From a virus, in IMG/VR virus record IMGVR_UViG_3300030685_000017, positions 60,608 to 124,607 of that record: DNA of 64,000 nucleotides; one strand, written 5' to 3'. Positions 3,510-63,704 of this stretch are shown piece after piece; the first letter of the stretch is position 1, and each line of letters opens with the position of its first letter. Under the pieces are notes generated by a model, which searched no databases, was not told the DNA's origin, and saw only the letters and a list, made by a program, of their open reading frames with translations. The translations under genes and the position numbers were made by a program.

Positions 3510-4034
3510 ATGAGTGATTGGACATATATAAGTGGTGTATTAACAGTTTCTCCCATGGGAATAACGCAAGCTGAAAAAAGATATGTTCTTGATACTGTAT
3601 TAGCTCATTTACCACTTGTCACAGGTAGTGAAAGAGATATGAATATGTATGTAATTCTAAAAAGGGGAGAGAATTCATCGTGTACTGTTGATGAGTTTGG
3701 AGAAAGTACAAACAATTTAACAGATAGTTATGAAGGTCATAATCGTAAAAATGGATGGTTAAGAACACAAGATGAATATCTTTTAGTCGTAAACGGAAGT
3801 TTCAGAGATAGGGTATTCAACGAAACTTTACGTGAATTTAATAAATGGATTTGTAGATTAGCTAAAAGAATTTCTGTTGAAGAAGTTCTTGTAGAAGTTA
3901 AGGGTTATAATGAAAATATTATAATAAAAAATGATCATCAAATTTATACAGAAATGTTTGAATATCCGAGTTGGTGTGATAAAAAATCAAAAAATTGGTG
4001 CGAATATTTACTGTGGGAAAAAGTGGAGGAGTAA
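3510..4034 (+). CDS. conserved phage hypothetical protein
   Basis: 174 residues. It opens with WTYISGVLTVSPMG and continues with ERDMNMYVILKRG and CTVDEFGEST, a pattern I associate with uncharacterised proteins common in gut Firmicutes phages. Alpha-beta, soluble, no signal peptide. It has a GAAAGGA site 9 bases before ATG. The next gene starts at 4036 directly after its stop. Confidence 0.75.
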   Translation: MSDWTYISGVLTVSPMGITQAEKRYVLDTVLAHLPLVTGSERDMNMYVILKRGENSSCTVDEFGESTNNLTDSYEGHNRKNGWLRTQDEYLLVVNGSFRDRVFNETLREFNKWICRLAKRISVEEVLVEVKGYNENIIIKNDHQIYTEMFEYPSWCDKKSKNWCEYLLWEKVEE

Positions 4035-4035
4035 T

Positions 4036-4257
4036 ATGGATAATTTATTTATTAAAAAAGAAGATGGATCGTATATTATGACACCTTTAAATAAGCAGTT
4101 AAATAGAAAAGCAGGAGAAACGATAGAATTATTATTTGATGTATTATTAGACAGCGGAATTACTAATGTAGAAGCTAAATATGTTATTGATATGGTTACA
4201 GAAGAAGTAATGCTTAATAAAATACTTAATTTACACCCCATATTAAGATCAATCTAG
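4036..4257 (+). CDS. small helical hypothetical protein
   Basis: 73 residues from ATG 4036. I prefer this start to an in-frame one at 3931 because GGAGGAG lies 6 bases upstream and the longer frame would overlap the previous gene by 100 bases. The product is mostly helical (ETIELLFDVLLDSGITNVEA). It ends in TAG, one of several genes here that use TAG as a stop. No family recognised. Confidence 0.6.
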   Translation: MDNLFIKKEDGSYIMTPLNKQLNRKAGETIELLFDVLLDSGITNVEAKYVIDMVTEEVMLNKILNLHPILRSI

Positions 4258-4678: not shown

Positions 4679-4808
4679 AAAGAATAAAGCAAAGAATAGT
4701 TATATCACTAATGGGTATGATAAAAAAGATGGGAAATGGAAACGATATGCTTATTTTACAAAGAGAAATAGAAGTAATATAAAAATGGAGACAAATTATG
4801 ACGTTTAA
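4662..4808 (+). CDS. 48-residue basic protein
   Basis: Starts inside the end of the preceding gene and ends 11 bases into the next reading frame, a tight overlapping arrangement. The product is strongly basic (MASQNKKNKAKNSY, KKDGKWKRYAYFTKRNR). Upstream AAAGGG can serve as ribosome binding site. A small nucleic-acid-binding protein is conceivable. No family recognised. Confidence 0.45.
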   Translation: MASQNKKNKAKNSYITNGYDKKDGKWKRYAYFTKRNRSNIKMETNYDV

Positions 4809-5043
4809 AGAAGTAAGTAGGGTTGAATGGGAAACATCACGTAAAGTAAATGGTAAGTATGAAACGGATGGGAGAACAGTTGGATCAAATTAGGATTCTT
4901 TTGGCATTATAGTAGAAAATATTTTATATCACGAACCAGAAAAAGAATGTCCTTATAATTTTTGTGATCTAATTTTATCTAACGAAGTTATTATTAGGGA
5001 ATTTGATATAAAACAAGTAACATTCAACACTAAGAAAGGGTAA
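4798..5043 (+). pseudogene. 81-codon gene interrupted by one in-frame TAG
   Basis: ATG 4798 opens MTFKEVSRVEWETSRKVNGK, runs 31 codons to TAG at 4891-4893, then stays open in the same frame for 49 more codons (DSFGIIVENILYHEPE and onward to FNTKKG) ending in TAA at 5041-5043, three bases before the next start. The second part looks as protein-like as the first. Either a recent nonsense mutation or amber readthrough. Ribosome binding site AATGGAG lies upstream. Confidence 0.55.
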
Positions 5044-5045
5044 TT

Positions 5046-5456
5046 ATGAAAAAAATAATATCTATTATTTTATTAATAAATATAATAGTAAGTTTGACAG
5101 GATGTGGAGGAAAAGTAGAAACTAGAAATATCAAAAGTTGTGTGTTAGATAAGCAGACGACCAATAGTTCTAGTGGTACTTTTATCTTGGGCATGGGTGT
5201 TTTTAGTTCGGATACAGATATTACTACAAAATATTATATGTATATTAAAAGTGATGAAGGTTACAGACTGCAAGAAATAGATAGTGAATATTTACAAATA
5301 GTGGAGACAGATAAACGAACTCCTAGCATTAAAGGATATTTTTCTAGTGACGATGGAGTATCAGGTGGAATAATTTATGGTGGACAGTATACGGTGTATG
5401 TTCCTACCGGGACGATCACACAAGAGTATAAAACTAAAATTAATACTGAAAAGTAA
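5046..5456 (+). CDS. phage-encoded lipoprotein
   Basis: 136 residues. The N-terminus is a lipoprotein signal: two Lys, a hydrophobic stretch (IISIILLINIIVSL) and lipobox LTGC with Cys at about residue 20. The rest is a soluble beta-rich domain with Gly-rich turns. Expected location is the outer face of the host membrane. Small phage lipoproteins of this form often act in superinfection exclusion; that role is inference. Confidence 0.75.
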   Translation: MKKIISIILLINIIVSLTGCGGKVETRNIKSCVLDKQTTNSSSGTFILGMGVFSSDTDITTKYYMYIKSDEGYRLQEIDSEYLQIVETDKRTPSIKGYFSSDDGVSGGIIYGGQYTVYVPTGTITQEYKTKINTEK

Positions 5457-5517
5457 AAAATACGAATGAAACATAGATTTCATCCGATCTTAAAGAATAG
5501 AGAATGGAGAATTGATT

Positions 5518-5943
5518 ATGGATACCGTGAGAATGTGGCTATGTACAGGCATTAAAAATAAAGCAGATGAAAAAATGTTTACACTGAATGAAATCTACAT
5601 TTCAGACGATCAAGGTTTTTGTATTACAGATAATAAAGGACAGTCTCAACTGGGGGAATATATGTCTGTTGGTCAAATTACAGATTATTATCAAATAGAT
5701 TTTATACAGATTTCTCCATACCTCAGTTGTCCTATTTGTGGACATCAAATGTATATTGTAAATAAGCAAGGTCATATGAAAAAAAGGATATATTGTGATA
5801 TGTGTAAAAAAGCAAAGAATAAATATATATGTTATACTTGGGATGATATTAATCAAGGATATAAATGGTATGACGCTAGTATTTATACATATAGAACTAT
5901 ATTTCTTTACTTAATTGATGGATCAATATTTGAAGGTAAATAA
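5518..5943 (+). CDS. zinc-ribbon hypothetical protein
   Basis: 141 residues from ATG 5518, preceded by GGAG with 8-base spacing; an in-frame TTG six bases earlier is less likely. A C2C2 zinc ribbon is visible: CPICG and, about 21 residues later, CDMCKK. The first half looks like a small beta domain (FTLNEIYISDDQGF). Zinc ribbons of this type usually bind nucleic acid or mediate protein contact. Function unknown. Confidence 0.7.
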   Translation: MDTVRMWLCTGIKNKADEKMFTLNEIYISDDQGFCITDNKGQSQLGEYMSVGQITDYYQIDFIQISPYLSCPICGHQMYIVNKQGHMKKRIYCDMCKKAKNKYICYTWDDINQGYKWYDASIYTYRTIFLYLIDGSIFEGK

Positions 5944-5945
5944 TT

Positions 5946-6260
5946 GTGAATATAAATAATTTTTGTCGTTCAAAAGATAAAATGGCTGTAAAATGTGATA
6001 GTTTAGCAGAAGTAAAAGAGTTATTTATTATATTTCAGAAATATCATTTAGAATGGGCTAATGGTACTGTATATAATCCAAATTATTCTTTTATATATAA
6101 AGATGATTATGAGAATATATTTTTTACAAATAAAGGTACTACAGTACATTTATTCTATGCTCAAATGAATAATATTAATTTATATACTTTTAAGCAATTA
6201 AAAAATATTTCTCAGGATTTTTTGATTATTGCGGAAAGGAATTTAATATATGAAAACTAA
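5946..6260 (+). CDS. second-class small protein with TFKQ motif
   Basis: 104 residues with a GTG start (GAAGG 9 bases upstream). It carries MAVKCDSLAEVKELF and then LEWANGTVYN, matching the second N-terminal class (T/C-x-x-E-x..L, then Trp-x-x-G). The LYTFKQLKN motif is about 20 residues from the C-terminus, further inside than in its relatives. It overlaps the next gene by 11 bases. Confidence 0.7.
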   Translation: MNINNFCRSKDKMAVKCDSLAEVKELFIIFQKYHLEWANGTVYNPNYSFIYKDDYENIFFTNKGTTVHLFYAQMNNINLYTFKQLKNISQDFLIIAERNLIYEN

Positions 6261-6501
6261 TATTTTTCATGTTGGTGATATTGTCACAGGAAGCAAGGAT
6301 AGTCTATATGGATTAACAAATCAATTTATGTTAGCGGGTGAGATTATACGTATTTGGGATGATGGATATATAACAATTCGATATTTAAAAGGAAGAGATC
6401 AAAAATGCATAAACCATGTGTATACTGTATGTTCACATGAATTTGTTCTGGTTAAATCAAAATCAATTGAATTTTTAACTTTTTCTGATAGAATTAAATA
6501 A
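6250..6501 (+). CDS. small SH3-like protein with TFSDR tail
   Basis: 83 residues: F-H-V-G-D-I-V-T-G-S at the start, a beta-rich body, and the C-terminal FLTFSDRIK. Its body differs from the KSW-EM-KEYG family but keeps the G-D-x-V beginning. It starts inside the previous gene and is followed by the tRNA-Leu. Confidence 0.75.
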   Translation: MKTNIFHVGDIVTGSKDSLYGLTNQFMLAGEIIRIWDDGYITIRYLKGRDQKCINHVYTVCSHEFVLVKSKSIEFLTFSDRIK

Positions 6502-6516
6502 TAAATATAATTATTC

Positions 6517-6601
6517 TGCGGACATGGCGTAATTGGCAGACGCAATGGACTTAAAATCCATTGTCCTTTTGGGCGTGAGGGTTCAAGTCCCTTTGTCCGC
6601 A
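6517..6601 (+). tRNA. tRNA-Leu (anticodon UAA)
   Basis: Full cloverleaf: acceptor TGCGGAC/GTCCGCA, D arm with the AATTGGCAGACG loop region, anticodon stem ATGGA/TCCAT with loop CTTAAAA (anticodon TAA), long variable arm as required for Leu, and T arm GAGGG-TTCAAGT-CCCTT. Length 85. CCA is not encoded. UUA is a very frequent Leu codon in this AT-rich genome, so it would support phage translation. rtcB lies about 700 bases downstream. Confidence 0.95.
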
Positions 6602-6624
6602 TAAAATATTTAAAGGAGGAATAA

Positions 6625-6948
6625 ATGAGAATGGAATTTTTTATTATGTTATCACAAGAAAAACAAATATATACTATAATTGCAACAGAAAGACAATTAA
6701 AAATTTTTATGATTTATTTTAAACGATACGTAAAAAACGATGAAAGCTTTTATAAAAGTTATTTTGATTCAGCTTGTGATTTATTAAGACGGGGTAAACG
6801 AGTGGGATTATGTTATTTTTGTGTTGCTAATGCTTCCAGTTTTATAGGAACTACTTTTACACGTTATTTTATAAATGAATTATATGCTTCTAATAGTCAT
6901 AATATTTTCTTAACCTTTAAAGAAAGGCGGTTATACGATGACAAATGA
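6625..6948 (+). CDS. second-class small protein with TFKER tail
   Basis: 107 residues, strong AAGGAGGA site. It forms a tandem pair with the next gene: both have F-I/V-x-L-x-Q-x-K-x-I/V-Y-T-I-I, then a ..QLKIFMIYFKRY-like helix, a D-E-x-F-Y motif and a middle Cys pair (CYFC here). It ends FLTFKERRLYDDK. The last codons overlap the next gene by 11 bases. Confidence 0.8.
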   Translation: MRMEFFIMLSQEKQIYTIIATERQLKIFMIYFKRYVKNDESFYKSYFDSACDLLRRGKRVGLCYFCVANASSFIGTTFTRYFINELYASNSHNIFLTFKERRLYDDK

Positions 6949-7252
6949 TTTTTTTGTATTATTAGGACAGTCAAAACCTGTCTATACAATTATTAAAACA
7001 GAAGATCAATTAAAATTATTTATGTTTTATTTTAAAAAATATACACATCAGGATGAATGTTTTTATAGGGACTATTTTAAAGTCGCAAAATTTTTAATAC
7101 ACGAATATGGAAAAGTGGGTGCATGTAGCTATTGTGCTATATTAGTTGAAGGGTATGGAAGTAGTTATAAATATTATGATATAACAGAAGTGTTATCTTC
7201 TATTAATATGCATGCCTCATTTTTAACTTTTAAACAAAGAGTACAAAAATAA
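6938..7252 (+). CDS. second-class small protein with TFKQR tail
   Basis: 104 residues, the tandem paralogue of the preceding gene (YTIIKTEDQLKLFMFYFKKY, DECFYRDYF, CSYC) with tail FLTFKQRVQK. The bodies have diverged but the order of motifs and the tail are retained. Function unknown. Confidence 0.8.
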   Translation: MTNDFFVLLGQSKPVYTIIKTEDQLKLFMFYFKKYTHQDECFYRDYFKVAKFLIHEYGKVGACSYCAILVEGYGSSYKYYDITEVLSSINMHASFLTFKQRVQK

Positions 7253-16799: not shown

Positions 16800-17798
16800 A
16801 TGCAAGGACGTATTGAGCATACTTTACAAAGAGAACAGTCTATAGAAAAGAAGTTAAAAGATTTACCAAGTTATATGACTGAATATTATTATGCTATATC
16901 TGCAAACTTAGAGAGTGTAAGTGTATTAAGTTATATTAATATTATAAATCAATATATATGTTTTATTTCATCTTTAGGTAAAGAACCTAACTTTATAGAA
17001 TTACAAAATAATGTTGCTCAATTTTTAAAATCAAAAGAAACACGGATACAAAGAGGAACAATTGTACAATCATCTAGTGCTAATGTAACAAAAATACATT
17101 CAGCATTAAAAAATTTTATGGAATTCTTATGTAGTAAGCGTTATATTACCGATAATCCAATGGTCTTTATTAAAAGAATTAAACGAAAAGATGAAGTAAA
17201 AAGATATAAACTTAATATATCAGACTTAAATGATATTATTACTGCTGTAGATTATGAGCAAGGAACTGGAAGAGAAAGACAAATACAATTAGAATGGAAA
17301 TCAAGAAATAAATTAATTTTATTATTATTTATGAACACCGGAATGAGAGAAACTGCTCTCAGTGAAATAAATCTTTCTGATATTGATTTTGAAAACAATA
17401 TATTAAGAATTATAGATAAGGGCTCAAAACACCACGAATATCAAATTGATCATTTAATTGTTTATATACAAGACTGGTTAAGAAAAAGAGAACAATTAAT
17501 GAGAGGTTATCATGCAAATGATGCTTTATTTATTTCAGAACGCAGAACAAGAATTTCTAGTAAAGCAATTATAGATATAGTTGGAAAAGTATCTATGCAA
17601 GGATTGGGGTATAGAATTACTCCACATAAGTTACGTGCCGCCTTTTGTACTATTATGTATGAAGAAACAAAAGATATTGAATTTGTTAGACAAGCAGTAG
17701 GACATTCTAATGTTGCTGTAACTCAACGATATATTGTCAGTGATAATTCAGCACGTAAACAATCTGCATTGATTATGGCTAAAGGTTTAGGTATGTGA
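16800..17798 (+). CDS. tyrosine recombinase
   Basis: 332 residues, AGGAGG site. N-terminal SAM-like DNA-binding helices, then the catalytic domain with GMRETALS (first Arg), HKLRAAF (His-x-x-Arg), GHSN (second His) and TQRYIVS (nucleophilic Tyr). Acts on DNA sites as an XerC/D-like or integrase-type enzyme. It lies in the early region, is followed 8-16 bases later by the cysteine desulfurase gene, and is one of three such enzymes in the window. No attachment site could be assigned. Confidence 0.9.
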   Translation: MQGRIEHTLQREQSIEKKLKDLPSYMTEYYYAISANLESVSVLSYINIINQYICFISSLGKEPNFIELQNNVAQFLKSKETRIQRGTIVQSSSANVTKIHSALKNFMEFLCSKRYITDNPMVFIKRIKRKDEVKRYKLNISDLNDIITAVDYEQGTGRERQIQLEWKSRNKLILLLFMNTGMRETALSEINLSDIDFENNILRIIDKGSKHHEYQIDHLIVYIQDWLRKREQLMRGYHANDALFISERRTRISSKAIIDIVGKVSMQGLGYRITPHKLRAAFCTIMYEETKDIEFVRQAVGHSNVAVTQRYIVSDNSARKQSALIMAKGLGM

Positions 17799-37025: not shown

Positions 37026-40000
37026 ATGACAGTAGAACAATGGTTAGGAAAAGATAACATACTTGGTATTGATATTTGGCATAAGAAATATCAATACCAA
37101 GATGAAACATTTGAAGAATGGATTAATAGAATATCCGATGGAAATTCAGAAATAAAAGAACTTATTCTTCAAAAAAAATTCTTATTCGGTGGAAGGATTT
37201 TATCAAATAGAGGATTAGAAAAATTAGGAAAAAAGATTAGTTTAAGTAATTGCTATGTAATGTCACCTCCTGATGATAATATTGAATCAATATTTGATTG
37301 TGCTAAGAAACTTGCTAGAACATATTCCTACGGAGGTGGATGCGGTATCGATATTGGTAAACTTAGACCCAATGGATGTAAAGTAAATAATGCCGCAGAT
37401 AAAACAACCGGAGCAGTATCATTTATGGATTTATATTCAATGGTTACTGGATTAATAGGACAGTCTGGAAGACGCGGAGCTTTGATGATATCAATACCAT
37501 GCACTCATCCCGATTTGCTTGAGTTTATTGATGTAAAAACAGATCTAAATAGAGTAACCAAAGCTAATATATCTATAAGAATTACAAATGAATTTATGAA
37601 AGCAGTTAAGGATAAAAGACAATTTTTATTATATTTTGATATAGAATCTACTGGTGAACATATAGAAAAAAAAGTAAATGCATATGAAGTATTTCATAAA
37701 TTATGTGAAAATAACTGGAATTATGCAGAACCCGGTATGTTATTTTGGGATACAATAACTGGATATAACTTATTAAGTAATAATAAAGATTTTGAATATG
37801 CAGGTACTAATCCATGCGTAACAGGAGATACTCTTATATTAACAAATAAAGGATATTTTCAAATAAGAGATATAGTAGATAAGCCAACAACCATATGGAA
37901 CGGATATGAATGGTCGGATGTATACGTAAGAATTACTGGCACTAATCAAAAAATGCTTAAAATAACTTTATCTGATGGATCTGAATTAGACTGTACAAGA
38001 TATCATAAATTCATTTTATCAGATAACTCTAGAGTAGAAGCAAATAATTTAAATATAGGAGACAAATTAATAAAATGTATCTTCCCTATTATAGAAGGAG
38101 AAAATAATAGTTTAGAAAAAATAGCATATACTCAAGGATTTTTTATGGGGGATGGATCTTCTGAAAGTAATAGAAAAAGATTATCAATTAAATTAATCGG
38201 AGAAAAAAGAAAAGTAATTGATAGATTAATATATTCAAATAATAACTATTGTCCTTCTTTTGATGGTGATTTTTTAACACTAGAATATAACAAACAAGCC
38301 TTTAATAAAGAATTTGTTCCAGACGCCAAATATAATATTAGGACAAGGCTAAATTGGTTAGCTGGCTATATTGATTCAGATGGAACACTACAATCCAAAG
38401 ATGGAAGTATTAGTATAAGTTCGATTAATAAATCTATTTTGTTAAAAGTAAAATATTTACTTAACACCATAGGATGTAATGGTACAATAAGTATGATGTA
38501 TCCAGAACAAATTAAAGAAATGCCTAAGAATGATGGAACAGAAAATACAATAGAATGTCTTTGTCAAACATCATATCGTTTATTAATAAGTTGTTATAAT
38601 ATAAAGCGGCTTGTTGATTTAGGACTTAGTTTAACAAGAGTACCCATGATTGCAAATCCTGACAGAGATGCATCCAGATATATATATGTAAAGGACATAA
38701 AAGAAATAGAAGATTGTGAAACCGTATATTGTTTTAATGAACCAAAAAATCACTCTGGAATCTTTAATGGAGTTATAACTGCGCAGTGCGCCGAAGAACC
38801 CTTACCCGCGGGTGGAAGCTGTTTATTGGGCAGTATTAACCTATCCGCATTTGTAAAAAATGATTCATTTGATTTTGGTGATTTTAGTAATACTGTATCA
38901 ACAGCTGTAATTGCATTGAATGAAGTACTCGATGAAGGATTACTTTTACATCCCTTACAAGAACAACGTGACACCGTAAGAGATTGGAGACAAATCGGTT
39001 TAGGTATTATGGGATTAGCAGATATGTTAATCAAACTTAAATTGACTTATGGATCAAAAGAATCTATTGAATTATGCGATAATATTGGAAAATGTTTAAC
39101 TAATAAAGCTATTATACAATCTGCATATTTAGCTAAAGTAAACAAAACTACGTATCCAAAATATAATCCTTTAATTGTAGAAACAGAATTTTTTAACACC
39201 AATATAACAAATACTGATGATCGTGAATTAGTAAAAAAATATGGGTTAATGAATTCACAATTATTAACTATTGCACCGACTGGTACACTTTCTACAATGC
39301 TTGGAATTTCAGGTGGAATAGAACCGATTTATGCAAATTTCTATACACGTAAAACGGAATCACTTCATGGTCATGATGAATATTATAAAGTTTATACTCC
39401 AATTGTAGAACGATATATGCAAGATAATAAAATAAAAGACGATAAAGATTTACCTAAATTTTTTATTACTTCTCAAGAATTAGATTTCTATGATAGAATA
39501 AAAATGCAAGAAGTATGGCAAAAGCATATTGATGCTTCTATTTCATCCACTATTAATTTATCACATGATGCTACGGTTGAAGAAGTAGAAAAATTATATA
39601 TATATGCTTGGCAACATAATTTAAAAGGGGTTACAGTATATAGAGATGGTTGTAAACGTAGTGGTATTCTTACAACTACTGAAATTAAATCTGACACATC
39701 GTCTACTTCTATACAAAAATCAGAACCAATTCCTCGTGGTATGATTATAAAGGCTGATGATAATTGTATTGGACGTAAACGTACATTACAAACTGGTTGT
39801 GGAAGTCTACATGTTGAAGCATTCTTTGATCCTACAACTGGAGAACTACTTGAAACATATTTCAGCAAAGGGAGTTCAGGGGGTTGTGGAAATTTTATGG
39901 TAGGTCTATCTCGTATGATTTCTTTATCAGCTAGAGGAGGAGTAGATATATATTCTATTGTTGATCAACTTAATTCTAGTGGTTCATGCCCATCGTACGC

Positions 40001-40271
40001 TGTAAGAAGTGCTACAAAACATGATACAAGTAAAGGCTCTTGTTGTCCAGTCGCGATTGGTAATGTGTTATTAGAAATGTATGAAGAAGTACATAATGAT
40101 ATATTTGAAGAAGATGAAGAAAACGAAGAAGAACATCTTATAATCACAACATCCCTTAAAATTACTCCTAAACAATTAGATAAAAATAACTGTCCTCAAT
40201 GCGGAGAATCTTTAATATTCGAGGGTGGATGTATAATTTGTAAAAATTGTGGATGGTCGAAATGTGAATAA
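37026..40271 (+). CDS. nrdJ: class II (cobalamin-dependent) ribonucleotide reductase with intein
   Basis: 1081 residues including a 324-residue intein. Reduces ribonucleotides to deoxyribonucleotides. SNCYVMSPPDD, YGGGCGIDIGKLRP and TNP-CAEEPLPAGGSC give the active-site cysteines; TIAPTGTLSTMLGISGGIEP is the phosphate-binding loop; C-terminal NCPQCGESLIFEGGC, CKNCGWSKC zinc/redox tail is typical of class II. No small subunit or activase gene nearby, consistent with class II. The intein sits exactly before the thiyl-radical Cys. AAAGGAG site. Confidence 0.9.
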   Translation: MTVEQWLGKDNILGIDIWHKKYQYQDETFEEWINRISDGNSEIKELILQKKFLFGGRILSNRGLEKLGKKISLSNCYVMSPPDDNIESIFDCAKKLARTYSYGGGCGIDIGKLRPNGCKVNNAADKTTGAVSFMDLYSMVTGLIGQSGRRGALMISIPCTHPDLLEFIDVKTDLNRVTKANISIRITNEFMKAVKDKRQFLLYFDIESTGEHIEKKVNAYEVFHKLCENNWNYAEPGMLFWDTITGYNLLSNNKDFEYAGTNPCVTGDTLILTNKGYFQIRDIVDKPTTIWNGYEWSDVYVRITGTNQKMLKITLSDGSELDCTRYHKFILSDNSRVEANNLNIGDKLIKCIFPIIEGENNSLEKIAYTQGFFMGDGSSESNRKRLSIKLIGEKRKVIDRLIYSNNNYCPSFDGDFLTLEYNKQAFNKEFVPDAKYNIRTRLNWLAGYIDSDGTLQSKDGSISISSINKSILLKVKYLLNTIGCNGTISMMYPEQIKEMPKNDGTENTIECLCQTSYRLLISCYNIKRLVDLGLSLTRVPMIANPDRDASRYIYVKDIKEIEDCETVYCFNEPKNHSGIFNGVITAQCAEEPLPAGGSCLLGSINLSAFVKNDSFDFGDFSNTVSTAVIALNEVLDEGLLLHPLQEQRDTVRDWRQIGLGIMGLADMLIKLKLTYGSKESIELCDNIGKCLTNKAIIQSAYLAKVNKTTYPKYNPLIVETEFFNTNITNTDDRELVKKYGLMNSQLLTIAPTGTLSTMLGISGGIEPIYANFYTRKTESLHGHDEYYKVYTPIVERYMQDNKIKDDKDLPKFFITSQELDFYDRIKMQEVWQKHIDASISSTINLSHDATVEEVEKLYIYAWQHNLKGVTVYRDGCKRSGILTTTEIKSDTSSTSIQKSEPIPRGMIIKADDNCIGRKRTLQTGCGSLHVEAFFDPTTGELLETYFSKGSSGGCGNFMVGLSRMISLSARGGVDIYSIVDQLNSSGSCPSYAVRSATKHDTSKGSCCPVAIGNVLLEMYEEVHNDIFEEDEENEEEHLIITTSLKITPKQLDKNNCPQCGESLIFEGGCIICKNCGWSKCE
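37815..38786 (+). mobile_element. intein with LAGLIDADG endonuclease in ribonucleotide reductase
   Basis: 324 residues from Cys1 (CVTGDTLILTNKGYF) to a terminal Gln (IFNGVITAQ) followed by Cys+1 of the host enzyme (CAEEP). A Gln instead of the usual Asn at the end is rare but known in some ribonucleotide reductase inteins. Two DOD motifs (TQGFFMGDGSSES and LAGYIDSDGTL) with their Asp residues suggest an active homing endonuclease. Splicing is needed for an active reductase. Confidence 0.92.
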
Positions 40272-43084: not shown

Positions 43085-44101
43085 TTAAATTATATTTAAC
43101 ATAATCTGTTTAATATTTAGATTATCATTACAAATATAACATCTTTCTGTAACTCTAGTGTCTGCATGACCTAACATAATAGATACTAATTTTATATCTT
43201 TAGTCTTATTATATAATTCAGAAGCGAACGTTTTTCTAAAGATATGTACTGTGGTTTTTACGTGCACATTAGATTTTTTTCCTATATTTTTTGCTATTGT
43301 TTCAATTGTACCTTGTACCATTTCTTTACTATTTATATTATTTTTCTGAGAAATAAAAACATATCCATTTTGTCTATCATTAATATACTTTTTTAATTCT
43401 ATACAAGCTCTATATGATAATATTCCTTCTCTTTCAGAACTATCACTTTTATATCCATGTATTTTTATTTCTCTTGTAGAAAAATTTATATCTGTAATTT
43501 TTAATTTTGTTATTTCTCCAACACGCATACCCGTACTAAGCATTAATTCATATAAAGCTTTTTCTCTATTATTATTGATATTGGTTCTACATAATTCAAT
43601 TTCTTCTTTTGTAAGTCTATCTTTTTTACAAGATTTTTGATGTACTCTATCTATATCTAATACTATATTTTCTGAAATATGATGTTTTTTAAATGCCCAT
43701 TGAAAGAATATTAACAAATTACGACAAATAGTGGCAATATAATTTTGAGATAAATGATTATTATTTTTAATTTTAATATACTGTTTAATAGCTAAAAAAT
43801 CAATTATATTTTGACTAATTACTTCTTTATAATTTAATTTAGTATATTTTAAAAAGCTATTAACTGTATAAATATAACATTTTATTGTTGAAATTTTTAT
43901 ACCTTTAGCCAACATATCTAAACTGAATCTTTTTATAATCCATTCATTCGTTTTTATTTCTGTAGTTATTTCTTTTTTCATAGGAGTAATTTCAAAATCG
44001 GTTAATTTTACTATAAGTATTGTTTTTAAAAAATTCTGATGTTCAACATCTAAAAATTTAATTGTCTCTGCTAAAATATCATTAATAATTTGCTCTTTCA
44101 T
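43085..44101 (-). CDS. tyrosine recombinase beside tail-fibre genes
   Basis: 338 residues. N-terminal SAM-like domain (GIKISTIKCYIYTVNSFLKY), catalytic domain with STGMRVGEI (first Arg), HIFRKTFAS (His-x-x-Arg), LGHADT and TERCYICN (Tyr nucleophile). It has its own strong promoter on the minus strand inside the silent fibre cassette. Its place between fibre tip genes and lysis genes, rather than near an early operon, fits a DNA invertase for fibre switching more than a prophage integrase. Confidence 0.9.
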   Translation of the reverse strand: MKEQIINDILAETIKFLDVEHQNFLKTILIVKLTDFEITPMKKEITTEIKTNEWIIKRFSLDMLAKGIKISTIKCYIYTVNSFLKYTKLNYKEVISQNIIDFLAIKQYIKIKNNNHLSQNYIATICRNLLIFFQWAFKKHHISENIVLDIDRVHQKSCKKDRLTKEEIELCRTNINNNREKALYELMLSTGMRVGEITKLKITDINFSTREIKIHGYKSDSSEREGILSYRACIELKKYINDRQNGYVFISQKNNINSKEMVQGTIETIAKNIGKKSNVHVKTTVHIFRKTFASELYNKTKDIKLVSIMLGHADTRVTERCYICNDNLNIKQIMLNII

Positions 44102-44131: not shown

Positions 44132-44160
44132 ATTATAGCACTTTTAAAAGAAAAAATCAA
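44132..44160 (-). promoter_or_regulatory. promoter of the fibre-linked recombinase
   Basis: On the minus strand TTGATT (44160-44155), 17 bases, TATAAT (44137-44132) preceded by TGC, an extended -10. The start codon is 31 bases from the -10 box, with AAGGAGAAAA between. A dedicated promoter in the late operon. Confidence 0.8.
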
Positions 44161-44186
44161 TGAAAGAATAAAAAATTTTATTCCGT

Positions 44187-44196
44187 TAAATGGTAA
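44187..44196 (+). repeat. 10-bp inverted repeat, silent side
   Basis: TAAATGGTAA, which recurs in inverted orientation at 44852-44861 inside the expressed fibre gene at the constant/variable boundary. In both copies the repeat is read in the same codon phase (AAT GGT = Asn-Gly). Possible crossover site. Confidence 0.4.
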
Positions 44197-44499
44197 ATTA
44201 ATTCTTTACGATAACCACGATTTAAAAATAGAAAAATCGGATCCAGAATATTTTGGACTAGCAAAGCTAATGGAACAGATGTTTCTAATCTTGGAACTAC
44301 AATTCCAATATTACCCGCGTATTTCCCAAAAGATAATATTATCTCTCCTGCATCCCACATGAATACCGCCGGTGCATGGTATAGCGGTGGAACAGCCCGT
44401 ATAAATACAAACGGGTCAATGAGTTTTGCATATGGTGGTACGACGCAAATAGTGGAAAACTCTGGATGGTATGGATTTAATTTTAGTTATTCTATTTAA
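44187..44499 (+). pseudogene. silent, inverted tail-fibre tip cassette
   Basis: Plus-strand reading gives LNGKLILYDNHDLKIEKSDP then EYFGLAK, a one-base slip near 44258 (an A appears to be missing from an A run), then ANGTDVSNLGTTIPILPAYF and on to SGWYGFNFSYSI with TAA at 44497-44499. It has no start codon or ribosome binding site. The C-terminal 70 residues resemble in pattern those of the minus-strand fibre gene 44515-45174 (K-D-N-I, N-T..W.G, G-x-x-S-x-A-Y). The two stops lie 15 bases apart, tail to tail. Confidence 0.6.
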
Positions 44500-44514
44500 C
44501 TCTCTATTATACTA

Positions 44515-45174
44515 TCAGCCATTAGCAATATATCTTATACCATATTGTGCAGCATATACAGTGGTATCAGCAGTGTAATGCGCATAAAGAGAAAGAGTAC
44601 CTTTTGCAAGAGAAATACCAATTACAGTGCCAGTCCAAGTATTAATCGTGTTACCCATTCCACAATTTAATATGTTGTCTACACGAGGAAGATATTTGCT
44701 ATTATCAAAGGTTAAAACCAAGCCATTGTTTGCTAATCCTGCGGGATAATATCCATCAATGTATATTTCTTTCGTTGCTGAATTATATAATGCACTTGTT
44801 ATTGTGATATGCGTAGCTGTAATATGTGACGTTATATCTACCCAAGTCAAATTACCATTTATTTGAGTGATTTCATTCCCAATATTGTCTTGTATTACAT
44901 TATATCCAGACGTCGGAGAAATAATAATTGTTCCTCCATTAGTAATTGCTGTTGTAATTTTATATAAAATACCTCCATAAACTAAAAATTCTCCTATAGC
45001 ATATGCTTTAGATGCTATTAATGTAGTTTCTATTGTGGCAAAATTATGCATTGTATTAGTTATTCCATCAGAAGCATATATATCATCAGTTATTGCAAAA
45101 TAAGAAACAGGAGAAAAACCAGTATCTTTTTTTATTAATTTTTTTTGATGCGTAATTGTGGATAAAGTACTCAT
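44515..45174 (-). CDS. tail-fibre / receptor-binding tip protein
   Basis: 219 residues. Constant first half (SKAYAIGEFLVYGGILYKIT, TAITNGGTIIISPTSGYNVI) shared with the gene at 46205, then a variable C-terminal half from INGNLTWVDI (LPRVDNILNCGMGNTINTW, SLYAHYTADTTVYAAQYGIR). This half is the probable host-contact domain. AAGGAGAAAATA site. A 92-bp stretch is identical to the gene at 46205. Confidence 0.7.
   Translation of the reverse strand: MSTLSTITHQKKLIKKDTGFSPVSYFAITDDIYASDGITNTMHNFATIETTLIASKAYAIGEFLVYGGILYKITTAITNGGTIIISPTSGYNVIQDNIGNEITQINGNLTWVDITSHITATHITITSALYNSATKEIYIDGYYPAGLANNGLVLTFDNSKYLPRVDNILNCGMGNTINTWTGTVIGISLAKGTLSLYAHYTADTTVYAAQYGIRYIANG
44852..44861 (-). repeat. 10-bp inverted repeat, expressed side
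   Basis: Minus-strand TAAATGGTAA in the fibre gene, partner of 44187-44196. Recombination between them would invert about 675 bp and join the constant half to the silent tip in frame. Confidence 0.4.
44866..44957. repeat. 92-bp direct repeat, copy 1
   Basis: Identical base for base to 46286-46377, in the same orientation, inside two different fibre genes. Encodes the segment from TTAITNGGTIII to IGNEIT. Confidence 0.95.
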
Positions 45175-45264: not shown

Positions 45265-46188
45265 TTAAGATAAAGATAATCCATATATTAATTTTCCATT
45301 GTAAACTAAACTGGAAACTTCTACACCATTATAAAATACTTGCTGTACAGCTGAACCGTTATAGTATAGATTAAAAATTTTATCATATGCGGCAAAGGTA
45401 ATTCTAGCCAAACCATTGCCTTGCTGAATACTATTAGACATTGATGCAGAATATGTTACACCATTTATTGTTATAGCCGGAACCCCTCCAGTAAAACCAG
45501 ATCCCCCAGAACCACCTCCATCTTGCCAACCACTACCTCCACCATAAAGACCTCCTCCGCCTCCACCTTCTATTGAATAGTTACTTCCTGCAGAAGTTTT
45601 AGTTCCAGATCCCTGACCAAATCCAGCCCACATTGCTCCTTGTGATGTTCCTGCAGAAGTTTGAGATCCACCAGTACCACCATCTCCAGCTGTTTGCCCT
45701 GTTAAACCTCCACCATATCCTCCACCATATATTCCATGTCCATCTACACACTTATCTCCACCACCACCTCCAGCAACAATTAATATCTCTGGAATATAAG
45801 AAGCAAAGTTGCTTAGTACTCCTCTATTAGTAAGAGTTATAGACGTACATCCACCACCAGAAGCAAGGTATCCTGTTCCACCATTACCATAAGCAATATT
45901 ACCACCACCATTGTAACCACCAGGTAAATAATTAGCTTGTGCAGAACCAACATGTTTACCAGAACCAGTACCACCTACAGCAATATAGATAGTTTGATTC
46001 TTTGTTAACTGTACATACCCAACTGAATAACCACCATATCCACCTTGGTTTAACGAACATCCACCTTGCGCCCCCCATGTTTCAAGTTTATATACTCCTG
46101 CAACCGGTGCTGTAAACGATTGTATTCCACCTATATAAGCATAATCGTTGTAAGCCCCAATTATTGGGTTAATTGATGCAATTGACAT
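45265..46188 (-). CDS. glycine-rich tail-fibre / adhesin protein
   Basis: 307 residues. After an N-terminal beta region (FTAPVAGVYKLETWGAQGG) it is dominated by Gly clusters (GGYNGGGNIAYGNGGTGYLA, GGGGGGLYGGGSGWQDGGGS), then a C-terminal domain with YNG-type repeats (LYYNGSAVQQVFYNGVEVSS). Glycine-rich folds of this kind occur in receptor-binding tips. AAGAGGTGATATTTC precedes the start. Predicted virion protein. Confidence 0.75.
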   Translation of the reverse strand: MSIASINPIIGAYNDYAYIGGIQSFTAPVAGVYKLETWGAQGGCSLNQGGYGGYSVGYVQLTKNQTIYIAVGGTGSGKHVGSAQANYLPGGYNGGGNIAYGNGGTGYLASGGGCTSITLTNRGVLSNFASYIPEILIVAGGGGGDKCVDGHGIYGGGYGGGLTGQTAGDGGTGGSQTSAGTSQGAMWAGFGQGSGTKTSAGSNYSIEGGGGGGLYGGGSGWQDGGGSGGSGFTGGVPAITINGVTYSASMSNSIQQGNGLARITFAAYDKIFNLYYNGSAVQQVFYNGVEVSSLVYNGKLIYGLSLS

Positions 46189-46204: not shown

Positions 46205-46594
46205 TCATATTACTGAAACAAGATATAGAATTTTGTTCGTTGCATCATATGAATTCACTTTGATATTTACATTATTCTTTAATGCAGTGATTTCATTCCC
46301 AATATTGTCTTGTATTACATTATATCCAGACGTCGGAGAAATAATAATTGTTCCTCCATTAGTAATTGCTGTTGTAACACGATAAATAAGTCCATTATAA
46401 ACAAAAAAGTCATTTACTGCATATGCTTTAGAAGTTGTTAATGTAGTTTCCACATTAGAAAGATTAGTTATGAATGGAACACTACCATCAGAATTATATA
46501 TATCATCTATAACGCCCCAATGGGATATTTTTGCAAATCCAGTACTTTGTTTAATATATTGTTTATAATGAATTATTGTAGATAAAATACTCAT
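46205..46594 (-). CDS. short fibre-tip paralogue
   Basis: 129 residues. Same constant half as 44515-45174 (SKAYAVNDFFVYNGLIYRVT) but only a short variable end after the 92-bp repeat (LKNNVNIKVNSYDATNKILY). Likely a minor fibre or a truncated version of the tip gene. AGGAGAAAAA site. Confidence 0.7.
   Translation of the reverse strand: MSILSTIIHYKQYIKQSTGFAKISHWGVIDDIYNSDGSVPFITNLSNVETTLTTSKAYAVNDFFVYNGLIYRVTTAITNGGTIIISPTSGYNVIQDNIGNEITALKNNVNIKVNSYDATNKILYLVSVI
46286..46377. repeat. 92-bp direct repeat, copy 2
   Basis: Identical to 44866-44957. Recombination between the copies would exchange variable ends and delete or duplicate the glycine-rich gene between them. Confidence 0.95.
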
Positions 46595-62725: not shown

Positions 62726-63685
62726 TTATCCTATTTTAAAGCTATTAGCTCGTTCCTTAATTTTACTATTGTCAATTTTGAGATAGAACTTCTTAGTGGT
62801 ATCTGTACTTTCATGATGAAGTAATGTAGATACATCTTCTAAAGACATTCCGGCTTCATTTTTTAATAAAGTAGCATATGAATGTCTAAAATCATGAGGA
62901 TGTAAACTGGGTTCTCCGATCATTATTCCAATAATTTTACACCAACTATCTAAAGTTCCATTTGTTATACAATTCTTCTCATTAGTAGAATTTGTAATAA
63001 ATAACCACCCATAATCTTCTATCTTATTATCAATTCTGTATTGCTTTAATTTTTTTAAATAGTCTACAATTTCATCATTAAGATATAATTCAACTACTTT
63101 ACCTTCTTTTTCTAAAACATCTTTACATATTAAATTGTCTAAATCTATTTGTTCCCATTTTAAATGTGCTATAGCATTAACTCTAGCCATCGTAAATAAA
63201 GAAATAAAAGCATAAACTAATAATTGTAAATCTCCTTTATCTATTAATACTTGACGCATTAATTTTACTTCACTCATTGTTAAATAAGTCTGTTGAGTTA
63301 TTGGTTGACCCGCTTTAGGTCTATCAATAAATTCTGTAGGAGATTCTGTAATCATCTTTTTCTTACGTAAAAATTTATAAAAAGCTGAAATAGAAGACAT
63401 GACTCTTTTTTGTCTATTGGTATTATTACCTTGCTGTTTTCTCCAATAAAAATATTCTTCCAGATCTTCATCTTTCGCTTCTAATACTGATAAATTAAAT
63501 TGTTTATCATACATAAAAATAAACCATTGTATTAAATCAGCATTATATTGTATAATAGAATTAAGAGATAATTCACGTATAGACATATCTATTTGATATT
63601 TTTCAAAATATTTTAACGTTTCAGGATTAATTTGTTTTCTTTTTTCAGGATCAGATAATGAAATCCTTTTACTTCGTTCTGCCAT
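62726..63685 (-). CDS. tyrosine recombinase
   Basis: 319 residues from the ATG at 63685 (GGAAGG upstream); another in-frame ATG lies four codons earlier. N-terminal core-binding domain, catalytic domain with FTMARVNAIAHL (first Arg), HDFRHSYATLL (His-x-x-Arg), LHHEST and KKFYLKID (Tyr). XerC/D-like. Third such enzyme in the window and first of the late genes seen here. No attachment site recognised. Confidence 0.9.
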   Translation of the reverse strand: MAERSKRISLSDPEKRKQINPETLKYFEKYQIDMSIRELSLNSIIQYNADLIQWFIFMYDKQFNLSVLEAKDEDLEEYFYWRKQQGNNTNRQKRVMSSISAFYKFLRKKKMITESPTEFIDRPKAGQPITQQTYLTMSEVKLMRQVLIDKGDLQLLVYAFISLFTMARVNAIAHLKWEQIDLDNLICKDVLEKEGKVVELYLNDEIVDYLKKLKQYRIDNKIEDYGWLFITNSTNEKNCITNGTLDSWCKIIGIMIGEPSLHPHDFRHSYATLLKNEAGMSLEDVSTLLHHESTDTTKKFYLKIDNSKIKERANSFKIG

Positions 63686-63704
63686 ATTACCTTCCATTCA
63701 AAAG

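What the first reader, a model, noticed from the sequence alone, without database searches (positions are those of the whole stretch)
44187..45174. Probable invertible tail-fibre switch: inverted silent tip cassette next to a recombinase
The expressed fibre gene (minus) and a start-less fibre tip (plus) are tail to tail with 15 bases between their stops, as in Mu- and P1-type invertible fibre cassettes. A 10-bp inverted repeat (TAAATGGTAA) lies at the constant/variable boundary of the expressed gene and at the head of the silent tip, in the same codon phase, so inversion would make an in-frame new fibre. A tyrosine recombinase with its own promoter adjoins it. The known invertases of such phage systems are mostly serine recombinases. 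One lost base near 44258 would have to be repaired or be a sequence error.
Basis: partly seen in the sequence, partly recalled or inferred. Interest (0 to 1): 0.82.

Follow-up and report, generated by a model that had tools for sequence, protein, structure and literature searches.

The report
Phage tail-fibre flip cassette, one tip broken
A bacterial virus carries a spare, backwards tail-fibre tip beside a recombinase and two matching short flip sites, a layout shared with other phages that swap fibre tips and with bacterial genes that shuffle restriction-enzyme specificity, but here the spare tip is broken and every available copy points the same way.

Summary
The reported elements are real. 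The expressed fibre (44515-45174, minus) and a start-less tip (44215-44499, plus) lie tail to tail with 15 bases between stops, beside a tyrosine recombinase (43085-44101, minus). The 10-bp inverted repeat alone is no better than chance (4 such pairs in 2.1 kb; 4.9 expected). Comparison makes it credible. Relatives of the recombinase sit beside inverted pairs of one site type, TAAAT-N4-ATTTA, with a locus-specific but internally identical spacer, in type I hsdS shufflers and phage fibre shufflons. The window's repeat is that site (spacer GGTA), the only such pair within 1 kb in the 64-kb window (2 of 1000 shuffles). About ten other phage loci share the layout: fibre, inverted spare tip, recombinase. 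In two assemblies of one phage (over 99% identical) both tips differ exactly between the sites, and two of those tips recur in a third phage in another combination. So this is a two-tip inversion cassette by descent, closest to Rin shufflons and hsdS invertases, not Mu/P1. Current switching is doubtful: the spare tip has a frameshift in all six assemblies, its site has a degenerate half, and all six share one orientation.

The parts
43085..44101 (-). Tyrosine recombinase (338 aa), the proposed invertase
   Evidence: Pfam Phage_integrase 3.6e-29 plus SAM-like N-terminal domain; full-length relatives at 24-30% identity including the MKEQIINDIL N-terminus
44132..44160 (-). Promoter-like site for the recombinase, TTGATT-17-TATAAT, outside the invertible segment
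   Evidence: consensus scan, 10 of 12 matches with TG before the -10; not above shuffle background as a class
44187..44200 (+). Crossover site S at the head of the spare tip: TAAAT-GGTA-AATTA (right half-site degenerate)
   Evidence: family motif TAAAT-N4-ATTTA with one mismatch, same spacer as site E
44186..44256 (+). 5' part of the spare tip, in the codon phase of the site (LNGKLILYDNHDLKIEKSDPEYFG)
   Evidence: coding-like in this frame, mean 0.27
44240..44258 (+). Zone of the one-base frameshift in the spare tip
   Evidence: codon-usage signal changes frame here; same in five other assemblies
44251..44499 (+). Main part of the start-less spare tip (82 codons and stop, ending WYGFNFSYSI)
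   Evidence: codon usage; weak C-terminal similarity to the expressed tip, shuffle p 0.01 with PAM250 and 0.10 with BLOSUM62
44515..45174 (-). Expressed tail-fibre / tail-tip adhesin gene (219 aa)
   Evidence: ORF with start and ribosome-binding site; paralogue of 46205-46594, 61% over 109 aa
44862..45174 (-). Constant N-terminal part of the fibre
   Evidence: shared with the paralogue up to the site; sub-threshold CBM_5_12
44848..44861 (-). Crossover site E at the constant/variable boundary: TAAAT-GGTA-ATTTG, encodes QINGNL
   Evidence: L035 has CACTCAATTAAATGGTGATTT against CACTCAAATAAATGGTAATTTGA here
44518..44847 (-). Expressed variable tip
   Evidence: not shared with the paralogue; occupies the place of the swapped tips in kin
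46205..46594 (-). Paralogous fibre gene with the same constant part but no site
   Evidence: D1 repeat, tblastn

Best explanation
This is a minimal (two-tip) site-specific inversion cassette for a phage tail-fibre/tail-tip adhesin. The recombinase at 43085-44101 would bind TAAAT/ATTTA half-sites at 44187-44200 and 44848-44861 and exchange strands across the shared GGTA spacer, inverting about 0.66 kb so that the constant part of the fibre is joined in frame to one of two C-terminal tips that lie tail to tail. By descent it belongs with the phage fibre shufflons that use the same recombinase family and site type. In this phage population the cassette is probably locked or nearly so: the spare tip has lost a base and its site has a degenerate right half, so the inverted form would make a garbled fibre tip and be selected against. 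Shown: layout, sites, codon phase, frameshift, kin with the same layout, tip swapping between sites in kin. Inferred: binding and catalysis by this recombinase, the exact crossover position, function as a receptor-binding tip, present-day locking.
For: Homologous recombinases in other phages sit in the same order and orientation after a fibre with an inverted start-less tip: L008 fibre 4800-5555 (+), tip 5566-5940 (-), recombinase 6001-7020 (+); L035 fibre to 3565, tip 3701-4057; L042 fibre to 3647, tip 3654-4079; also L037, L055, L098, L099 and L102/L103, and with rearranged blocks L039 and L100. Site motif TAAAT-N4-ATTTA in inverted pairs with identical spacer: 15 of 26 hsdS-type and 5 of 35 other dereplicated loci, against 0-2 for the 19 other half-sites of the same letter make-up; spacers differ between loci (AGTG, GGTG, AGGG, GATA, CATA, AAGA, GCTA) but agree within a locus. 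The window pair is unique within 1 kb in 64 kb; 2 of 1000 shuffles of the region and 1 of 3000 constrained shuffles give one. L102 and L103 are over 99% identical outside the sites but carry different expressed and spare tips between them; tip A (L008, L103) is 99% and tip B (L008, L102) 98% identical across phages whose flanks are 72-77% identical, and the L008/L103 match starts at the site. Sites encode LN(G/S)(D/N/K)L in most fibre loci, QINGNL and LNGKL here.
Against: All six assemblies have one orientation as far as they reach, and neither alternative junction was found. The window recombinase is only 24-30% identical to the family and sits on a long branch of unsure place. Site S has AATTA for ATTTR. 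The tips match no known family, structure predictions were unusable (pLDDT 37 and 33), and similarity between the two tips is marginal. Some relatives of the recombinase have no such cassette.
Confidence: 0.8

Rival explanations
1. The switch is fully active today: both orientations occur and the inverted form gives a useful product, either because intact spare tips exist in part of the population or because a -1 ribosomal frameshift at the in-phase slippery heptamer T TTA AAA (44221-44227) restores the reading frame.
For: Sites share the spacer and codon phase; the recombinase is intact with a promoter-like site outside the segment; relatives clearly shuffle. One contig (L007) ends at window 44552, inside the segment, which could reflect a mixed population.
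Against: Frameshift and orientation are the same in six assemblies; alternative junctions absent in IMG/VR; the coding signal stays in the site's frame to about 44250, which fits a lost base there and not a slip at 44227; TTTAAAA is a common word in 28% GC DNA.
Confidence: 0.2
2. No switch: the recombinase is an ordinary integrase or resolvase, the plus-strand tip is a leftover of fibre-module exchange that happened to land tail to tail, and the inverted repeat is chance.
For: 10-bp inverted repeats are expected by chance here; a tyrosine recombinase between tail and lysis genes is a usual integrase position (general knowledge); spare tip broken.
Against: Same kind of layout, tail-to-tail tip and site type in about ten other phage loci with homologous recombinases; motif pair at 2 of 1000 by shuffling; two further tyrosine recombinases are present on the contig to serve as integrase.
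Confidence: 0.08
3. A Mu/P1-type (Gin/Cin) serine-recombinase inversion system.
For: Tail-to-tail alternative fibre ends.
Against: The adjacent enzyme is a tyrosine recombinase.
Confidence: 0.01

Closest known systems
Rin shufflon of Bifidobacterium prophages (PMC6109161) and Eggerthella lenta clade 1 prophages (PMC8778435)
   Same: Phage-borne tyrosine recombinase beside a receptor-binding protein gene with a constant N-terminus, a short crossover site inside the gene and variable C-terminal cassettes; dissimilar tips
   Different: Their sites are TTCCCTAACCC (11 bp) and ttccgtat (8 bp), not found at this locus; several cassettes there, one spare tip here; host groups differ; homology of the two recombinases was not tested
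hsdS invertases of inverting type I restriction-modification loci (PsrA of Streptococcus pneumoniae, PMC7096588; survey of inverting loci, PMC7394358)
   Same: Recombinases homologous over full length (27-28%) lie among partial hsdS genes in L024, L025, L030 and, with hsdS/hsdM neighbours, in many IMG/VR loci, with paired TAAAT-N4-ATTTA sites encoding INDNL
   Different: The target here is a tail fibre, not a specificity subunit; PsrA's own sequence and its 15-bp IR1 were not compared
R64 shufflon (Rci recombinase, pilV tips)
   Same: Tyrosine recombinase, constant adhesin part joined to alternative tips by inversion (from general knowledge)
   Different: No 19-bp sfx-like site in the window (motif from memory); plasmid pilus, not phage tail
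Mu G segment and P1 C segment (Gin, Cin)
   Same: Alternative tail-fibre ends on opposite strands
   Different: Serine recombinase with its own crossover sites and an enhancer (general knowledge); here a tyrosine recombinase and a different site

Membership tests
Tyrosine-recombinase phage RBP shufflon (Rin-like, functional sense) | Tyrosine recombinase adjacent to the RBP/fibre locus | tested here: met
Tyrosine-recombinase phage RBP shufflon (Rin-like, functional sense) | Short repeated crossover site at the constant/variable boundary and at the head of a silent C-terminal cassette, same codon phase | tested here: met
Tyrosine-recombinase phage RBP shufflon (Rin-like, functional sense) | Open silent cassette that would give a full-length alternative protein | tested here: not met
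   frameshift at about 44240-44258 in all assemblies
Tyrosine-recombinase phage RBP shufflon (Rin-like, functional sense) | Observed alternative arrangements in this phage | tested here: not met
   6 of 6 assemblies one way, 0 alternative junctions in viral contigs; reads not available
Rin shufflon proper | rix sites TTCCCTAACCC or ttccgtat at the locus | tested here: not met
Rin shufflon proper | Recombinase homologous to Rin | not tested
   Rin sequence not in hand
hsdS-invertase / fibre-invertase family with TAAAT-N4-ATTTA sites (defined here) | Full-length homology of the recombinase including the N-terminal region | tested here: met
   24-30% identity over the whole length, E 2e-22 to 2e-24; placed among the 56 rows with fibre and hsdS types rather than with the XerD-like rows, support 87/89, long branch
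hsdS-invertase / fibre-invertase family with TAAAT-N4-ATTTA sites (defined here) | Inverted pair of the site with identical spacer | tested here: met
   44187 and 44848, spacer GGTA, one mismatch each
Mu/P1 invertible fibre segments | Serine recombinase (Gin/Cin) | tested here: not met
R64-type shufflon | 19-bp sfx sites | tested here: not met
Any site-specific inversion system | Inversion catalysed between the two sites by the adjacent recombinase | not testable with these tools
   needs an experiment

The most novel reading that the evidence does not exclude
One family of tyrosine recombinases with one site type (TAAAT-N4-ATTTA, spacer free to vary but matched within a locus, embedded in a short LN/INxNL coding word) serves both the hsdS shufflers that vary bacterial restriction specificity and the tail-fibre shufflons that vary phage adsorption, so the two sides of phage-host conflict share a diversity engine; the window is a reduced, partly decayed member in a large low-GC phage.
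Probability: 0.6. Interest if true: 0.7.

Novelty: new variant of a known kind. Interest (0 to 1): 0.52.

Why it matters
Tyrosine-recombinase fibre switching in phages has been reported from Bifidobacterium and Eggerthella prophages, and from no others that the searched library showed. These data extend it to a wider set of phage loci, give a site rule that can be used to find more, tie it to the enzymes that shuffle hsdS genes, and supply a natural pair of assemblies (L102/L103) in which tips differ exactly between sites. The window adds a case that may be frozen by damage to the spare tip, a way for such switches to end.

Tried and rejected
Structure prediction of the spare tip and the expressed fibre gave no usable model, so no fold search was run. 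Pfam, PHROGs, NCBIfam, PDB and phage tblastn searches of either tip found nothing above threshold. The two tips of the window are not significantly similar with BLOSUM62 (p 0.10; 0.01 with PAM250, C-terminal diagonal), so homology between them is not claimed. The bare 10-bp repeat was rejected as evidence. A search for phages close to the window through its tail hub protein found only the same population in IMG/VR and distant Enterocloster bolteae phages (25% identity); in one of them (PMBT24) the annotated recombinase lies about 40 kb from that tail region. A programmed -1 frameshift at 44221-44227 was considered and held unlikely. The eight-sequence recombinase alignment was too diverse to search collections with, so narrower ones were used.

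Full report
What the window is. The window is bases 60608-124607 of a 124,607-base linear virus record. Its genes (tail tape measure, tail hub, lysozyme, DnaB-like helicase, DNA polymerase III alpha, B12-dependent ribonucleotide reductase with an intein) are those of a large tailed phage. The tail hub protein is 25% identical over its length to that of Enterocloster bolteae siphophages, so a Clostridia-type host is a fair guess, no more.

The observation. The expressed fibre gene, the start-less plus-strand frame, the 15-base gap, the inverted repeat and its codon phase are all as described. The plus frame uses codons like the genes of this phage. The frame that runs through the repeat is coding-like up to about 44250 and then the neighbouring frame takes over, which is what one lost base would do. 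Five other IMG/VR contigs carry the region unchanged (one of them, L007, only up to 44552), so the frameshift is not an error of one assembly. On its own the 10-bp repeat means nothing: 4 inverted 10-mers occur in the 2.1-kb region and shuffles give 4.9 on average.

Relatives of the recombinase. The recombinase has full-length relatives at 24-30% identity that share its N-terminal stretch. One, L008, is in an unrelated phage and shows the same order: fibre (+), spare tip (-) ending 10 bases away, recombinase (+). Others, L024, L025 and L030, lie among partial hsdS genes of type I restriction-modification loci. A search with a profile of such relatives gave 62 viral loci and a second one 13. 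Fibre-type loci include L008, L035, L037, L042, L055, L098, L099 and L102/L103 with the same order, and L039 and L100 with rearranged blocks. In L037, L039, L055, L098, L099 and L100 there are further cassettes on the far side of the recombinase, and in L100 the recombinase block is turned round relative to the constant fibre gene. Other relatives (for example L059, L079, L094, L095, L107, L109) show no such cassette.

The site. In these loci the inverted repeats centre on TAAAT-N4-ATTTA, mostly with at most one mismatch. The four middle bases differ between loci but agree between the copies in one locus, the pattern expected of recombinase-binding arms around a crossover region that must match. 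Of 26 hsdS-type loci (dereplicated at 90% identity) 15 have such a pair, and 5 of 35 others, while the other half-sites made of the same letters give 0-2. In the window the pair is at 44187 and 44848 with spacer GGTA. It is the only such pair within 1 kb in 64 kb; 2 of 1000 shuffles of the 2.1-kb region produce one, and 1 of 3000 when the places are fixed to the gene boundary and the head of the spare tip. In most fibre genes the site encodes LN(G/S)(D/N/K)L or close to it; here QINGNL and LNGKL. The motif was read from the hsdS and L008 loci with the window already in view, so the shuffle figures are a check and not a blind test.

Tip swapping in kin. L102 and L103 match at over 99% on either side of the two sites and not at all between them. 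L103's expressed tip is 99% identical to that of L008, and L102's spare tip is 98% identical to that of L008, although the flanks of L008 are only 72-77% identical to theirs; the L008/L103 match begins at the site. The three loci thus carry the combinations A/B, A/C and D/B. This shows exchange at the sites within one phage species and between species; it does not by itself tell inversion from transfer of whole cassettes.

How it probably works, and whether it still does. By analogy the recombinase would invert the 0.66 kb between the sites and join the constant part of the fibre to either tip. In this population the inverted form would run out of frame after about 24 residues of the new tip. 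The spare tip's site also has a degenerate right half, AATTA against ATTTG in the other copy and ATTTA/ATTTG in kin. All six assemblies are in the same orientation and the two predicted junctions of the other form are absent from IMG/VR. The best reading is a cassette that descends from a working switch and is now locked or strongly biased. The six assemblies may come from one study site and are consensus sequences, so a minority of inverted molecules is not excluded.

Relation to known systems. Rin shufflons in Bifidobacterium (PMC6109161, read) and Eggerthella lenta prophages (PMC8778435) are the published precedent for a tyrosine recombinase that varies phage receptor-binding proteins; their sites are different and absent from this locus. 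The hsdS invertases (PsrA, PMC7096588; inverting loci, PMC7394358) are the other close kin. The tree puts the window's enzyme with the 56 rows that hold the fibre and hsdS types rather than with XerD-like rows, at 87/89 support and on a long branch, so its exact place is open. I found no paper that joins phage fibre shufflons and hsdS shufflers through one site type, in a library without most subscription journals.

Noticed in passing
window 46326-46340 and 44906-44920: In the population contig L006 the paralogous fibre gene (46205-46594) differs at 46329, 46330, 46331 and 46334 while the window has both paralogues identical there: possibly a short gene-conversion tract between the two fibre genes.
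   Followed up: partly
window 16800-17798 (+) and 62726-63697 (-): Two further tyrosine recombinases on the same contig; the second lies beside a gene with weak RuvC similarity near the contig end. One may be the integrase.
   Followed up: partly
window 37026-40271 (+): B12-dependent ribonucleotide reductase interrupted by an intein (N-terminal splicing region at residues 264-330).
   Followed up: no
window 44848-45174 and 46268-46594 (-): The constant part of both fibre genes has sub-threshold similarity to carbohydrate-binding module CBM_5_12 (E 0.08 and 0.03); the comparable region of phage PMBT24 is annotated with chitin-binding domain proteins and a glycine-rich protein, and a glycine-rich protein lies here too (45265-46188).
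   Followed up: partly
L100 2947-6516, L098 1693-5960, L099 248-4176: Multi-cassette fibre shufflons on both sides of the recombinase; in L100 the block with the recombinase is reversed relative to the constant fibre gene.
   Followed up: partly
L102 3245-3889 and L103 1803-2438: Same phage in two metagenomes with different expressed and spare tips between the sites; a good natural test pair for read-level work.
   Followed up: yes
L007 position 1 (window 44552): This contig of the same phage ends inside the invertible segment, with no known repeat there; possibly a sign of mixed molecules, possibly nothing.
   Followed up: no
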